Shown in pieces: positions 9,950 to 27,295 of a stretch of DNA of 64,000 nucleotides (its first letter is position 1; every line of letters starts with the position of its first letter). The notes beneath the pieces were generated by a model. The model worked only from the letters and a program-made list of their open reading frames with translations, made no database searches and was not told where the DNA came from. The DNA comes from Bradyrhizobium sp. CB1650 (GTDB lineage Bacteria; Pseudomonadota; Alphaproteobacteria; Rhizobiales; Xanthobacteraceae). The stretch spans positions 1,827,501 to 1,891,500 of the forward strand of contig NZ_CP121695.1 of NCBI RefSeq assembly GCF_029761915.1. The letters run 5' to 3'. A program made the translations under genes and the position numbers.

Positions 9950-10026
9950 GCAGTTGTAGCTCAGTTGGTTAGAGCGCCTGTCTGTGGAACAGGAGGTCGG
10001 TGGTTCGAGCCCACCCAACTGTACCA
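9950..10026 (+). tRNA. tRNA-His (anticodon GTG)
   Basis: The 77-nt cloverleaf has an acceptor stem GCAGTTG/CAACTGT, D-arm GCTC..GAGC, anticodon stem CCTGT/ACAGG around loop CTGTGGA (anticodon GTG), T-arm GGTGG-TTCGAGC-CCACC and an encoded CCA. Discriminator A73 and the absence of an extra G-1:C73 pair fit the unusual alphaproteobacterial tRNA-His. Its last 17 bases plus one are repeated at 13132-13149, marking it as an integration site. Confidence 0.96.
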
Positions 10027-10027
10027 A
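10010..10027 (+). repeat. attL-like direct repeat within tRNA-His 3' end
   Basis: The 18-base sequence CCCACCCAACTGTACCAA is the tRNA-His T-stem/acceptor end plus one base. It is identical to 13132-13149 and is the expected core of a tRNA attachment site. Confidence 0.85.
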
Positions 10028-10092
10028 GATTGCGGATAACACCGCGTTCACAGCAACTTACTGACAGACTTGGTGTATTCGCGCTGCGCAAA

Positions 10093-10467
10093 ATGCGAAA
10101 GGCGTCACAAATTGCATTGCGGATGGTCGCGTTAGGTCGGGCTGCTGGTGGTCGATGGTTTGCCCGCAAGGTCATCCCCGAAGAAGTCCGAGAGGAGTAC
10201 GCGCGGCTCTTTGGCGTGAAGCGTGAAGCTCATCTCAAGCTCGCCGCTGATACCGCCAAGCATGAGGCAAAGGCGCGCCTTGGGGAGTGGGAAGCCGAGG
10301 TGGAAACTCGGATCGCCACCCTGCGCGCTCGGCGCAACGGGAAGGGCCAGCCCCTAACCCGGATCAACGCAATCGCGCTCGCTGGCCGCTGGTACAACTG
10401 GTTCATCGCGCAGCACGAGAATGATCCCGGACCTGCGAAGCGCTGGCGGGAGTTGGGCGACGTTTAG
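10093..10467 (+). pseudogene. Truncated tyrosine-type integrase, N-terminal fragment
   Basis: The 124-codon frame resembles the N-terminal part of phage-like site-specific integrases of the DUF6538 type: RWFARKVIPEEVREEYARLFG, an alternating basic/acidic helix (AKHEAKARLGEWEAEVETRI) and LTRINAIALAGRWYNWFIAQHEND. The catalytic domain with the Arg-His-Arg-Tyr residues is absent: the frame stops at 10467 and no catalytic-domain motif follows in any frame before the next gene. Position immediately after the tRNA-His attachment site fits an island integrase. The ATG at 10093 is one possible start; the exact start does not matter for a fragment. Confidence 0.72.
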
Positions 10468-10615
10468 GATTTATACAACTCGATTGTGGGATTGCATGCA
10501 CCCAGACATTCAATCAAAACTGACAACGATGATTGGACACGTTGGGGCCGATGTCTGCCGTTAGTAATTGCGGGCTGTGCGCAGGCAGAGGCTTTGCGGC
10601 CTACGGAGTTGACCA

Positions 10616-11005
10616 TTGTCGAAAAAGCTCAAGCCGATCCCGGCCGTCCCCTTCGATGTGCTCATAAAGGGCCACGAGGGCATCATCGCCGACCACGAAA
10701 GAGCAGGTCCGGGTGATCCCACCATTTCGCTGATGCGGACGCTGCACAAGGAGCAGAAGCCCGAGACCATTCTTGCCATCGACTACCGTCTCCGTGCCCT
10801 TGCCAAGATCATTAGTGAAGGCGAGGGCAAGCCATGGACATTCGCAATCACCGAAGATAACGGCCATATGGTCAACGAAGCGCTTTTCAAGGCAGCCGCA
10901 CGCGCGCCGCTCTTTGAGGCCGGGACTGTTGGACAAGTTGCGTTCGACCGCGATCAGTTTTTGAGGATAGCCCTTGAGGAGAGCGAGACGGATGGAGAAG
11001 CATAG
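10616..11005 (+). CDS. Hypothetical protein of the tRNA-His island
   Basis: This is a 129-residue soluble acidic protein that I do not recognise. It begins SKKLKPIPAVPFDVLIKGHE from a TTG start at 10616 with ACGGAG upstream, contains no membrane segment, and ends EESETDGEA. The TTG is the first start in frame that has any ribosome site; a later start is possible. Its 3' end overlaps the next gene by 14 bases, so the two are probably translated together. The moderate G+C content matches the island rather than the host flanks. Confidence 0.5.
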   Translation: MSKKLKPIPAVPFDVLIKGHEGIIADHERAGPGDPTISLMRTLHKEQKPETILAIDYRLRALAKIISEGEGKPWTFAITEDNGHMVNEALFKAAARAPLFEAGTVGQVAFDRDQFLRIALEESETDGEA

Positions 11006-11243
11006 TTTCCCTCCAAGGGCCGTGCGCTTGGAAGTGAGACATGACGATCATCTTGTGCCTGTGTGCAAAGGAAAGTGCCTTTGTGTTGCATGTGACGGCC
11101 GAATGGAAATCTTCCACGAGGGCAGGAAGGAGTGGTCAACCTGCCCGGTGTGCAGCAGCCAGAATAAGAACGTCTCCGACAATGGAGTCTGCCAGACGTG
11201 CAGGGGTATCGGCGCCGCGCCGCTGCGCGGTGGGCAAGCGTGA
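10992..11243 (+). CDS. Small protein with zinc-ligand cysteine pairs
   Basis: The 83-residue product carries a cysteine-rich region CKGKCLCVACDG and then CPVCSSQ and CQTC, which together form a plausible zinc ribbon or rubredoxin-like knuckle. The ATG at 10992 has GAGGAGAG upstream and lies inside the end of the preceding gene. No catalytic motif is visible, so binding of nucleic acid or a partner protein is the likeliest role, but this is inference. It precedes the DUF262 gene by about 290 bases in the same direction. Confidence 0.6.
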   Translation: MEKHSFPPRAVRLEVRHDDHLVPVCKGKCLCVACDGRMEIFHEGRKEWSTCPVCSSQNKNVSDNGVCQTCRGIGAAPLRGGQA

Positions 11244-11529
11244 ACCGCTGGACTGAATTGGATGGAGCAAATGAACCGGAGTGAGCGCCGTAGATCAGAG
11301 GCGGTCCATCGCTGGTCATACAGATAAGTGTCTTAAGTCAATGTTGGCTTCAAACCGATGGCTTCGATTGTCGCCAATGGGCTTCCTTGAGGGCAGGGCC
11401 TATCAACCCTCTCGGTGAGCTCGCCGTGAAGCTGTTGATACCTTAGCTCGCTCGGTCTGCGGAGATTGGCTGGCTCCGCCGTTTCACGCTATGGCTGAAC
11501 CGGTCGCCTGCATACACCGGAGGTCGCCC
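11244..11529. other. Intergenic stretch within the island
   Basis: About 290 bases without a convincing gene. It must contain the promoter of the DUF262 gene if that is not co-transcribed. I see no strong hairpin or repeat. Confidence 0.4.
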
Positions 11530-12969
11530 ATGAGCAAGAAGCCAAGCACGAAGCCTACGACAACCAATCCCGTGCAATCCACGCCCGCAGGCCTTCCCTC
11601 ACGAGCGCCCGAACCCACAGTAGACCGTATCGAAGAATTGGCGGGCCGCATTCTGCGGGGCGACATCCTGCTACCAAAGTTCCAGCGCGAATTTGTCTGG
11701 GAGAAGCATCAGATACTTGATCTGTTGGACAGTATTGCGAACAACTATCCGATTGGCAGCGTGCTCCTTTGGCGTAGTCGAGAGCTGCTGAAAAGCGAAC
11801 GCAACATTGCTGACCTGGAGATTGCTAAGACGCAATCCGGTTACCCCGTAAATTACCTGCTCGATGGCCAACAGCGTCTATCCACCATTTGTGGCGCACT
11901 GTATTGGAATGGGTCAGAGGCCGAGAGCCGCTGGAACCTTGCTTACGATTTGAGGACAAAAGCGTTCCTACATCTCGACACGTTGGATGATCCTCCGCTT
12001 CACCAAATACGATTGAATAAAATTATCGATCCGTCTGCGTATTTTCTGCACGTGTCGAGCCTCAAGACATTGGGCGCGCCTGACGTCGATGCATTGGAGG
12101 CCCAGGCAAAAGAACTTTTTGACCGCTTCAAAGACTACAAGATAGCGACGGTGACGTTGCATGAAATGTCGGTTGAAGCTGTTGCACCTATCTTCGAGCG
12201 AATAAACAGCCGTGGAACTCCGCTAACCATTGTCGATCTGATGCGCGCCGCTACATGGAGCGAGCAATTCGATCTGATTGACGCGATTACCGACATCAGC
12301 GATGAGCTTTCTAACAAATACTTTGGCGGTATCGAGCGTAAAGCCATCTTGCGCAGCATCTCGGCTGCGGCGGGAGGCGGTTTCTCTGAAGCAAGCATCG
12401 ATGGCTTGCGGAAGCACTCCTCCGGGGAATTAGAAGCCGCCGTTAAATCGACGAAGGAGGCTTATTCTCGTGCTGTCGATTTCATGTCGACCGAACTGCA
12501 CATTCCCTCTGACAAGCAGATACCCTACGTCAATCAGGTAGTTGTTCTTGCGGAGGTGTTTCGGCTTATCAAACATCTCACACCTGCTCAATTAGAGTCG
12601 GTGCGTCGCTGGTTCTGGCGAACAGCAGTCGCTGGTTACTTCGGCGGCTGGAATACTGGGAACATGGGCTCGGATCAGAAGGCCGTGAAGGGTTTCGCAG
12701 CGGCCCAAACGACCGAGATTGAAAGTGTTGTGCGCAATCCCGGCGCAGCTATTTGGACTGCCCAGCAGTTTCGCTCAAACACCGCTCATTCGAAGATACT
12801 GATTCTGCTGCTTGCGTTCTCCAAACCTCTGGATTTGCTCACCTCCCAGAACATCGACACTGGGGACGCGCTCTACCACGGCAACACTAAGGAGTTTCAT
12901 CACTTCTTCCCGCGAGATTATTTGAAGAGCAAAGGCCAAGATTGTCGCGGTACACGACATCCCGGCTAA
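11530..12969 (+). CDS. DUF262 (GmrSD-like) protein with frameshifted C terminus
   Basis: The N-terminal half has the DUF262 pattern shared with the GmrS part of type IV modification-dependent nucleases: LPKFQREFVWEKHQILDLLDS, SVLLWR, LLDGQQRLST, and later IFERINSRGTPLT. DUF262 is a ParB/Srx-like fold that hydrolyses nucleotides. The C terminus begins the expected HNH-like element (EFHHFFPRDYLKSKG, about residues 452-466), but the frame then runs into an unrelated end. Shifting frame at about 12931 restores KIVAVHDIPANLLLAA, which fits the family, and a further shift near 13000 continues it to about 13080. The start at 11530 has GGAGG upstream. As read, it is a 479-residue, probably damaged, defence-type protein. 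Confidence 0.72.
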   Translation: MSKKPSTKPTTTNPVQSTPAGLPSRAPEPTVDRIEELAGRILRGDILLPKFQREFVWEKHQILDLLDSIANNYPIGSVLLWRSRELLKSERNIADLEIAKTQSGYPVNYLLDGQQRLSTICGALYWNGSEAESRWNLAYDLRTKAFLHLDTLDDPPLHQIRLNKIIDPSAYFLHVSSLKTLGAPDVDALEAQAKELFDRFKDYKIATVTLHEMSVEAVAPIFERINSRGTPLTIVDLMRAATWSEQFDLIDAITDISDELSNKYFGGIERKAILRSISAAAGGGFSEASIDGLRKHSSGELEAAVKSTKEAYSRAVDFMSTELHIPSDKQIPYVNQVVVLAEVFRLIKHLTPAQLESVRRWFWRTAVAGYFGGWNTGNMGSDQKAVKGFAAAQTTEIESVVRNPGAAIWTAQQFRSNTAHSKILILLLAFSKPLDLLTSQNIDTGDALYHGNTKEFHHFFPRDYLKSKGQDCRGTRHPG

Positions 12970-13131
12970 TCTGCTTCTCGCTGCGCAGCTTGAACTGCTC
13001 CGCAGGTGATCTGCCGAGCGTTGTGGCGAGTGACGGTTACTTGAAGCGAATACAAAACGCAGAAACAAAAACCAACAATGGCGAAGCAAATTCGTTAGGT
13101 TTATCAAGGCTGAAGGCGCTTGTTGGCAGTA

Positions 13132-13149
13132 CCCACCCAACTGTACCAA
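13132..13149 (+). repeat. attR-like direct repeat
   Basis: This is a perfect second copy of the 18-base tRNA-His 3' end. It is not part of a second tRNA, because the upstream bases do not form a cloverleaf. It closes the island. Confidence 0.85.
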
Positions 13150-13269
13150 TGCTTCCAGCTAGTTAGCGTCGAGCGCGTCTTGTTCGCCCGTTTGGGTAGC
13201 GGATTTAGGTAGCGATGCGACCTCTCGGCAGCCCACGCCAATCCTCACCTGAGAGAGCCCTGACTTTTT

Positions 13270-13617
13270 TCAATGATCATCGAGGATGCGGACAAGCTCC
13301 ACGTCCAACTTCAGTCCGGGCGATTGCTTTGCGAAGCCCGTGCAGGATGTGGATGAGCCATCGACCGAGCGGCCTGACACGACGATGTCGATCTCATCCA
13401 ATCCAAAGACACCGGGCGGTCCGGGCACCACGCGTCGGGCGGAAAGACGGGCTTTGAAGTGCTCGCCCTCCTGCGTCCAGTTTCCCGCATAGGCAAACGT
13501 GGAATCGCCGCCGTCCAGTTTCCCGTCAGGGCCGAACTCGACGACCCCGGCGCCTTCGCCAACCGGCGTCTTGAACCAGACGGAGTATTTACCCGGGGTG
13601 ATCATCAAGCCCACCAT
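13270..13617 (-). CDS. GrlR-like small protein
   Basis: The 115-residue product has the pattern of GrlR-like beta-barrel proteins: GKYSVWFKTPVGEGAGVVEFGPDGKLDGGDSTF (in short blocks), then YAGNWTQEGEHFKARL, DEIDIVVSG and a late GFAKQSPGLKLDVELVR. GrlR was named as a negative regulator of type III secretion in enterobacteria, but the rhizobial homologues are uncharacterised, so no role is assigned. Starts at 13617 and 13605 are both possible and neither has a strong ribosome site. It lies just outside the island's right repeat and is opposed to a RES-domain remnant. Confidence 0.6.
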   Translation of the reverse strand: MVGLMITPGKYSVWFKTPVGEGAGVVEFGPDGKLDGGDSTFAYAGNWTQEGEHFKARLSARRVVPGPPGVFGLDEIDIVVSGRSVDGSSTSCTGFAKQSPGLKLDVELVRILDDH

Positions 13618-13770
13618 CGCAACGGGTATCCTGGCTGTGTTGAGCCAGATCAAAATGGCTATCGAGTGGCAGGCGCGTGTTCTCGGGCGCCTGCAACCTC
13701 AGGGCAGACGGACTTCCGCTGGCGGACAGGGCCAGAGTTCGGCAAGGCATCCTCGATTGGTCGGACTGTG

Positions 13771-13968
13771 AATTCACCTGTCCCCAGGGTGACACGCGGT
13801 TTGTTGCGGCCCTGGTTCGACGCGGCGCGCACGGCGATGGTGTCCGTTCCATCGGTCATCGTGCCGTTCGCGCAAAACTACATCATCAATCCGAGACACG
13901 AGGACGCGGCGCGCATCCGCGTGTCGCATGTCGCGCGCTACCCCCATGACCTCGGGCTGTTCGGATAA
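13771..13968 (+). pseudogene. RES-domain toxin remnant, C-terminal part only
   Basis: In the frame ending at 13968, about 65 residues match the end of RES-domain proteins: the WFDAARTAMVSVPSVIVP block, QNYIINPRHEDAARI and a terminal HDLGLFG. RES toxins are NAD-degrading members of toxin-antitoxin pairs. The N-terminal two thirds with the Arg and Glu of the RES motif cannot be found upstream, where the opposed GrlR-like gene lies. No antitoxin gene is adjacent. This is inferred from the C-terminal motif alone. Confidence 0.5.
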
Positions 13969-14467
13969 AGGGCAGGCGGCGTCTGAAGCGCGCGACGATC
14001 CGCTGACCACCCCCACGCCCTCGATGATGGCATCATGCCGCTGTTTTGCCCGACGTGTCAAACGGGCTTCGTAAAATCCGCAAAGCCTATCAAGGCCTGG
14101 CTACTTTGCATGGGGTTGTTTTCGCGTTTTTTGCCGGACGGTCAGCGGAGCCTCAGGCCGCACCCGATCTCGCCTGTTCTGCCAATGGGTTAGTCGTGTA
14201 GTGCAGAGTCTTTCCCACACGGCTCTCATCCCCCGCGACCCGGCTACGCCAAGGCTTCGCCGGGGCTGACACTCTTGGGCCGCCGAAGCTTTAGCGTAGG
14301 CGGCAAGCGGGGGATCCAGTACGTCGCGGCTCCTCGACGAACCTCAGTCTGAGCCGACCGCCCTGTTGCCGAGAGCGCACACGTCCCGGTTTTCGCATCT
14401 ACGCTCGGTTGCCAACCAACAGGCGTTCACCCACTATTCCCTCCGAACTCGACGCGTGGGGGGATCG
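13969..14467. other. Repeat-rich intergenic stretch
   Basis: About 500 bases with no convincing gene. It includes a 26-base sequence (14099-14124) that recurs exactly at 27141-27166, and a segment near 14280-14320 (GGCAAGCGGGGGATCCAGTA) like dispersed Bradyrhizobium intergenic repeats. Confidence 0.5.
14099..14124 (+). repeat. 26-base exact repeat, copy 1
   Basis: This sequence, centred on CTTTGCATGGGGTTGTTTTCG without its last base, is identical to 27141-27166 in the same orientation. The flanking bases diverge at once. Confidence 0.8.
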
Positions 14468-27219: not shown

Positions 27220-27295
27220 TGGAGACCCGGCCTGGACTTGAACCAGGATAAAGAGCGATGCACCGCTCTCGCGTGGACGCTTCCGCCACCGGGCC
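27220..27295 (-). other. tRNA-like element (possible tRNA pseudogene) with an 8-nt anticodon loop
   Basis: The 76-base minus-strand sequence folds into a near-perfect cloverleaf: acceptor GGCCCGG/CCGGGTC (7 bp with one G-U), T8, A14, a T-arm CCTGG-TTCAAGT-CCAGG in the canonical position, discriminator T and encoded CCA. The anticodon stem AGAGC/GCTCT is perfect but encloses eight bases (GGTGCATC), with no U33. The D-stem has only three pairs. It therefore probably is not a normal adaptor. Confidence 0.5.

What the first reader, a model, noticed from the sequence alone, without database searches (positions are those of the whole stretch)
10010..13149. A 3.1-kb mini-island in tRNA-His with a broken integrase and a possible defence cargo
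An exact 18-bp repeat of the tRNA-His 3' end flanks the segment, the integrase fragment starts right at the left end, and the cargo is only two small overlapping genes plus a DUF262 gene. DUF262 proteins are often restriction or anti-phage parts, and tRNA islands are common homes for these. The combination of a cysteine-rich small protein, an unknown acidic partner and a DUF262 protein is not one I can match to a described system.
Basis: partly seen in the sequence, partly recalled or inferred. Interest (0 to 1): 0.78.

Follow-up and report, generated by a model that had tools for sequence, protein, structure and literature searches.

The report
Decayed mini-island in a tRNA gene
In this soil bacterium a 3.1-kb remnant of a larger mobile DNA element sits in the tRNA-His gene; its integrase and its anti-virus-like DUF262 gene are both cut short, so it looks like an ordinary relic of a family of elements that in some related strains carry virus-defence genes.

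Summary
The segment is real and its boundaries hold. tRNA-His and a second 18-bp copy (13132-13149) flank it; in seven relatives the window's right flank follows tRNA-His directly. About 82 bp inside the right copy lies a motif (ATACAAAA...ACAAA) shared with nine other island right ends and found beside a copy of the tRNA 3' end in 19 of 265 congeneric genomes. A like motif marks the left ends, so the window holds a member of one integrative-element family. Eight larger members (9.6-17.1 kb) keep a 541-codon integrase; several carry defence genes (DrmA/DrmB, methylase+Vsr, AriA/AriB-like, DUF262 Orf5, PifA).

The window copy is a decayed derivative. The integrase keeps about 117 of 541 codons. 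The cysteine-rich gene is out of frame at its native start, which explains the apparent overlap. The DUF262 gene, a GmrSD/BrxU-like restriction homologue, ends inside the probable HNH nuclease fold. The 129-aa ORF is intact.

The three genes are not a recurring system: all three families occur in only 1 of 265 congeneric genomes, the window's own, and 41 loci of the DUF262 family hold neither small gene. Verdict: a degenerate genomic islet, a new member of a known kind.

The parts
9950..10026 (+). tRNA-His (GTG), integration target
   Evidence: ARAGORN and Rfam RF00005, 71.2 bits
10010..10027 (+). left attachment copy (3' end of tRNA-His)
   Evidence: exact 18-bp repeat
10093..10111 (+). left arm-type motif (inferred function), diverged from the form seen in relatives
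   Evidence: motif at 81-84 bp in 28 of 29 left-end rows of relatives, 26 exact; window copy at 83 bp with 3 substitutions
10093..10464 (+). integrase remnant (N-terminal ~117 of 541 codons); homology to relatives stops at about 10461; the codon where the 541-aa ORFs start is not ATG, GTG or TTG here
10616..11005 (+). intact 129-aa ORF of unknown function (TTG start)
   Evidence: differences from the G078 homologue by codon position 20/10/54
11041..11243 (+). gene of a small cysteine-rich (zinc-finger-like, CxxCxGxG) protein, out of frame just after its native start
   Evidence: homologues P0187-P0192, loci L057-L059, genus search
11530..12969 (+). DUF262 (GmrSD/BrxU-like, PDC-M55C) gene, C-terminally truncated; family homology ends near 12936
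13049..13131 (+). conserved right end of the element family with arm-type motif ATACAAAA...ACAAA at 13050-13069
13132..13149 (+). right attachment copy
   Evidence: exact 18-bp repeat; seven unoccupied sites

Best explanation
A tyrosine-recombinase element integrated site-specifically at the 3' end of tRNA-His, which kept the tRNA whole and left an 18-bp second copy at its far end (shown by anatomy and unoccupied sites). The integrase presumably binds the paired ATACAAAA/(T)ACAAA motifs that sit about 82 bp inside each end (inferred from symmetry and conservation). After arrival the interior was lost or rearranged (inferred): most of the integrase is gone, the DUF262 gene lost the second half of its probable HNH nuclease fold where it now abuts the right end, and a small cysteine-rich gene lost its native start frame. 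When intact, the DUF262 cargo would have acted as a GmrSD/BrxU-like type IV restriction enzyme: nucleotide-dependent recognition of modified phage DNA followed by HNH cleavage (inferred from homology). Today the segment is most likely an immobile relic.
Confidence: 0.85

Rival explanations
1. A working three-gene defence system (129-aa protein, cysteine-rich protein, shortened DUF262 protein lacking a nuclease, in the manner of DUF262 systems without DUF1524 such as Menshen or Dazbog).
For: Tight tandem order in the window; the GmrSD_N domain with DGQQR is intact; PMC10952713 (passages read) reports DUF262 systems without DUF1524; most of the cysteine-rich protein stays open in a shifted frame.
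Against: All three families are in 1 of 265 congeneric genomes. None of 41 DUF262-family loci has either small gene, and no neighbour family is shared by more than 3 of 40 loci. The cysteine-rich gene is out of frame at its native start. The 13 other family members aligned continue past the point where the window copy stops.
Confidence: 0.04
2. A non-autonomous mini-element that still moves when a related integrase is supplied in trans, like other 1.1-3.1 kb islands at this tRNA.
For: Both attachment copies and the right motif are kept. Other mini-islands with broken or absent integrase exist (L089 2,930 bp; L069 2,227 bp; L175 1,369 bp; L072 1,123 bp), two of them (L069, L175) with motifs at both ends.
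Against: The window's left motif has diverged. Only a 31% integrase relative was listed in its genome. Whether any two mini-islands share cargo was not tested, so there is no sign of spread as a unit.
Confidence: 0.08
3. Chance assembly: the integrase fragment and DUF262 gene reached the site independently and the 18-bp copy marks an older, unrelated insertion.
For: The tRNA-His downstream zone is a patchwork in many relatives, and the DNA right of the second copy holds another decayed piece (weak RES match).
Against: The right end carries the same signature at the same distance from the repeat as islands with intact integrases, and unoccupied sites join at the repeat.
Confidence: 0.03

Closest known systems
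Small tRNA-borne genomic islands of Bradyrhizobium, e.g. BJ6TGI02 of USDA6 (PMC3927601, section 13 read)
   Same: Duplicated tRNA 3' end, lower G+C than the genome, 2.9-100 kb; BJ6TGI02 is 2,899 bp with an 18-bp duplication and no integrase gene listed.
   Different: BJ6TGI02 is at trnR-ACG. Table 5 of that paper lists no trnH island, and that section mentions no shared end motif.
intH-linked region beside tRNA-His in a Bradyrhizobium symbiosis ICE (PMC9239051, passages read)
   Same: An integrase-linked element adjacent to tRNA-His in the same genus.
   Different: That region carries nif/fix genes. Identity of its integrase to the family here was not tested.
BrxU / GmrSD type IV restriction enzymes (PDB 7p9k, 7p9m)
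   Same: GmrSD_N domain with DGQQR; whole-length fold match of an intact homologue.
   Different: Sequence identity is only about 16%, and the window copy lacks the end of the probable HNH domain.
PADLOC PDC-M55C (candidate defence protein)
   Same: Profile match over 10-461 of 554 for the window copy and 10-529 for intact P0069.
   Different: Neither small protein of the segment matched a PDC-M55 model.

Membership tests
site-specific tRNA genomic island | insertion at a tRNA 3' end with direct duplication | tested here: met
site-specific tRNA genomic island | unoccupied site with the same boundary in relatives | tested here: met
   seven relatives, L176-L182, at 52-65% identity
site-specific tRNA genomic island | integrase gene next to the tRNA | tested here: met
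   present as a remnant only, 117 of 541 codons
site-specific tRNA genomic island | intact integrase of its own | tested here: not met
   truncated; the only other relative listed in the genome is 31% identical
site-specific tRNA genomic island | excision or transfer | not testable with these tools
   needs experiment
tRNA-His element family defined here | right-end motif about 80 bp before the second copy | tested here: met
GmrSD/BrxU type IV restriction | DUF262 (GmrSD_N) domain with DGQQR | tested here: met
   PF03235 E 1.5e-30; D112-R116 invariant in 14 aligned sequences
GmrSD/BrxU type IV restriction | complete C-terminal HNH (DUF1524-like) nuclease | tested here: not met
GmrSD/BrxU type IV restriction | cleavage of modified phage DNA | not testable with these tools
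   needs biochemistry
PDC-M55 (PADLOC) | component C | tested here: met
   E 8.7e-80, partial
PDC-M55 (PADLOC) | other components beside C | tested here: inconclusive
   no PDC-M55 hit for the two small proteins; for 105 neighbours in 28 family loci only 25 of 146 matched models were listed
conserved three-gene system | the three genes recur together | tested here: not met

The most novel reading that the evidence does not exclude
Bradyrhizobium tRNA-His hosts one family of integrative defence islands, defined by symmetric arm motifs about 82 bp from each end. Interior deletion repeatedly produces 1-3 kb mini-elements that keep the ends, swap single defence genes in and out, and are mobilised in trans by intact family members; the window segment would be one such shuttle.
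Probability: 0.1. Interest if true: 0.55.

Novelty: new member of a known kind. Interest (0 to 1): 0.27.

Why it matters
On its own the segment is an ordinary relic. Its use is as a pointer: the end signature lets tRNA-His islands of this genus, several of which carry defence genes, be found and bounded exactly, and the segment shows one way a restriction gene can decay inside an immobilised island. If the mini-elements proved mobile in trans, that would help explain how single defence genes spread without their own integrase.

Tried and rejected
A three-gene defence system: rejected, the families do not co-occur. Frameshift by sequencing error as the cause of the DUF262 stop: judged unlikely, since the next ~190 bp match the missing C-terminus in no frame and their last 83 bp are the element's end. 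A conserved partner for the 129-aa ORF: none seen by eye in ten loci printed; loci L056 and L063 were fetched but their neighbours were not inspected. DNA relatives on plasmids: none in PLSDB. Pfam, NCBIfam, PHROGs and PADLOC gave nothing convincing for the two small proteins; all four used the longer, partly out-of-frame reading of the cysteine-rich ORF. A neighbour test for the DUF262 family gave scattered restriction genes (type I specificity in 3, mad2 in 4 of 105 neighbours at 1e-10) without a fixed partner; no control set was run. PADLOC hits come from proteins picked by eye, so they show that defence genes are present, not how common they are. The broken-integrase count covers only the loci listed first, which were found through the integrase N-terminus and with two candidates scored per genome; L032 was not examined. 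The exact right-end pattern misses variant ends such as L069, L072 and L089. Three of ten further genomes with a long right-flank match (G020, G096, G153) were not fetched. Paper searches: PDC-M55 gave 0 papers; searches listed 12, 12, 10 and 10 of 71, 16, 79 and 214 papers, and no listed title or abstract start describes this element family; only the passages and the one section cited were read.

Full report
What is there. The window lies in a 9.43-Mb single-contig genome. The genus is Bradyrhizobium by inference: two congeneric genomes have exactly the lengths that PMC3927601 gives for USDA6 and USDA110 (G057 9,207,384 and G027 9,105,828), and several homologues are named Bradyrhizobium. tRNA-His is at 9950-10026. 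Its last 18 bases recur once in 64 kb, at 13132-13149. The enclosed DNA is 55.1% G+C against 64.0% for the window.

Unoccupied sites. A query of the right flank (13132-14010) against 265 congeneric genomes found ten genomes, besides the occupied G049, in which about the first 70-85 bases match. I fetched seven (L176-L182); in each the matching stretch follows tRNA-His directly. The 82 bases after the repeat match the window's right flank at 52-65% and its left end at 28-44%. Eight other tRNA-His loci gave 17-49% against the right flank, so the two sets nearly touch. In G049 a similar flank (50%) follows an 11.9-kb island.

The element family. The ~83 bp before the right repeat match the DNA before the second tRNA copy in other islands. 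Twelve fetched tRNA-His loci were examined for a second copy and nine had one; in all nine and in the window ATACAAAA, then TACAAA or a close variant, stands 79-84 bp before the repeat. A like motif lies 81-84 bp inside the left copy in 28 of 29 left-end rows of relatives, 26 exact and 2 with one substitution, L072 lacking it; two of the 29 rows are from one genome. This left motif overlaps the integrase start. As an exact pattern tied to a tRNA 3'-end copy the right end occurs 21 times in 19 of 265 genomes, the window's included, and never when read backwards. In the window's genome the short motif alone occurs twice. I infer arm-type integrase sites. In the window the right motif is nearly kept; the left one has 3 substitutions.

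Larger and small members. Copy-to-copy sizes are 9,620 (G008), 11,874 (G049), 14,692 (G050), 15,192 (G251), 16,539 (G230), 16,798 (G195), 16,960 (G256) and 17,147 bp (G164); all eight keep 541 of 541 integrase codons. G214 spans about 23.1 kb (from coordinates) and has a broken integrase, 211 codons. Of 28 loci of relatives listed first (L004-L031), 27 have tRNA-His followed by integrase DNA: 14 intact, 12 broken, 1 cut by a contig end. Small members are L089 (2,930 bp), L069 (2,227), L175 (1,369) and L072 (1,123), with broken or undetected integrase. Of 19 island proteins picked by eye (18 from larger islands, 1 from L089), 15 matched PADLOC at 1e-5 or better. They include DrmA 1.2e-104 and DrmB 2.6e-32 with a cytosine methylase and Vsr in G251; methylase 2.1e-109, Vsr and an Old-like ATPase in G230; AriA 3.9e-23 and AriB 3.9e-13 in G049; DUF262 Orf5 1.4e-178 and PifA 1.6e-67 in G256; a weak ApeA match (4.3e-7) in G052, whose piece is not linked to tRNA-His on its contig. 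The four without a hit came from G256, G164, G008 and G084. The family thus carries defence genes, by a biased sample.

The cargo in the window. (a) The integrase matches codons 1-117 only; homology ends near 10461. (b) The 129-aa ORF (10616-11005) is intact. One search lists 66 proteins, its own included. It has no family match and no fixed neighbour by eye. Against its 78% relative in G078 the differences by codon position are 20, 10 and 54, which shows selection on the protein during their divergence, not necessarily in the island. Relatives are in 10 of 265 congeneric genomes at E 0.001 and, in a partly overlapping draw, in 9 of 391 family genomes at 1e-8, its own included in both. (c) The cysteine-rich protein has six listed homologues, the longest 71 aa with CPVC, CLCVAC, CPVC and CQTCRG motifs. 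Relatives are in 8 of 265 congeneric genomes, its own included. Three loci (L057-L059) hold it in one frame without the 129-aa ORF nearby. In the window its native start is out of frame, which created the apparent overlap; residues 5-69 stay open in the shifted frame. (d) The DUF262 gene is 94-96% identical to complete 555-aa proteins, two of them from named Bradyrhizobium. It keeps GmrSD_N with DGQQR and the HHFFP motif, then leaves the family near residue 469.

Is it a system? Forty-one loci from named records of several phyla carry relatives of the DUF262 protein; 40 gave a called gene. Within seven ORFs on either side no neighbour family is shared by more than 3 loci, and neither small gene is found in the 41 loci by protein search or by translated search, the cysteine-rich one with intact homologues. 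In the genus the DUF262 protein (E 1e-40, other members 28-32% identical) is in 9 of 265 genomes. Only G214 shares it with the 129-aa family, 1.5 Mb apart. Only G158 shares the two small families, on different contigs. The cargo is a mosaic, not an operon.

Known or new. A small Bradyrhizobium island at a tRNA gene with an 18-bp duplication and no integrase is in print (BJ6TGI02, PMC3927601). An integrase-linked region beside tRNA-His is mentioned for one symbiosis ICE (PMC9239051). The listings of searches, which were capped, showed no description of this element family. I file the segment as a new, degenerate member of a known kind.

Noticed in passing
13459-13968: Right of the island an ORF has a weak RES-domain match in its C-terminal part (E 6.6e-4, below Pfam's cut-off); it looks like another decayed remnant in the tRNA-His downstream zone. 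A full RES gene lies inside the G008 island (E 3e-22).
   Followed up: partly
13270-13653: The region of this minus-strand ORF is shared at 80-90% identity with 16 other congeneric genomes; function unknown.
   Followed up: no
27220-27295: ARAGORN calls a tRNA-like gene with an undefined anticodon that the Rfam scan does not list.
   Followed up: no
L064:8724-15809: A tRNA-His island in G251 carries DrmA, DrmB, a cytosine methylase and Vsr, with a NERD-helicase gene beside them, a DISARM-like set.
   Followed up: partly
L070:7792-9961: A tRNA-His island in G049 carries an AAA ATPase and an AriB-like partner, possibly PARIS-like; matches are moderate (3.9e-23, 3.9e-13).
   Followed up: partly
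L058:4765-9346: The cysteine-rich gene of G041 lies after a gene that by eye looks like a TIR-domain protein; not tested with a family search.
   Followed up: no
L161, L169, L165, L170: G195 and G230 each have two copies of the right-end pattern in opposite orientations, about 147 kb and 21 kb apart.
   Followed up: no
L061:15912-17291: A ~460-aa gene follows the integrase in several islands (by eye in L061, L064, L070, L172, L173, L174); the L061 copy has no Pfam match. A likely accessory of the element family.
   Followed up: no
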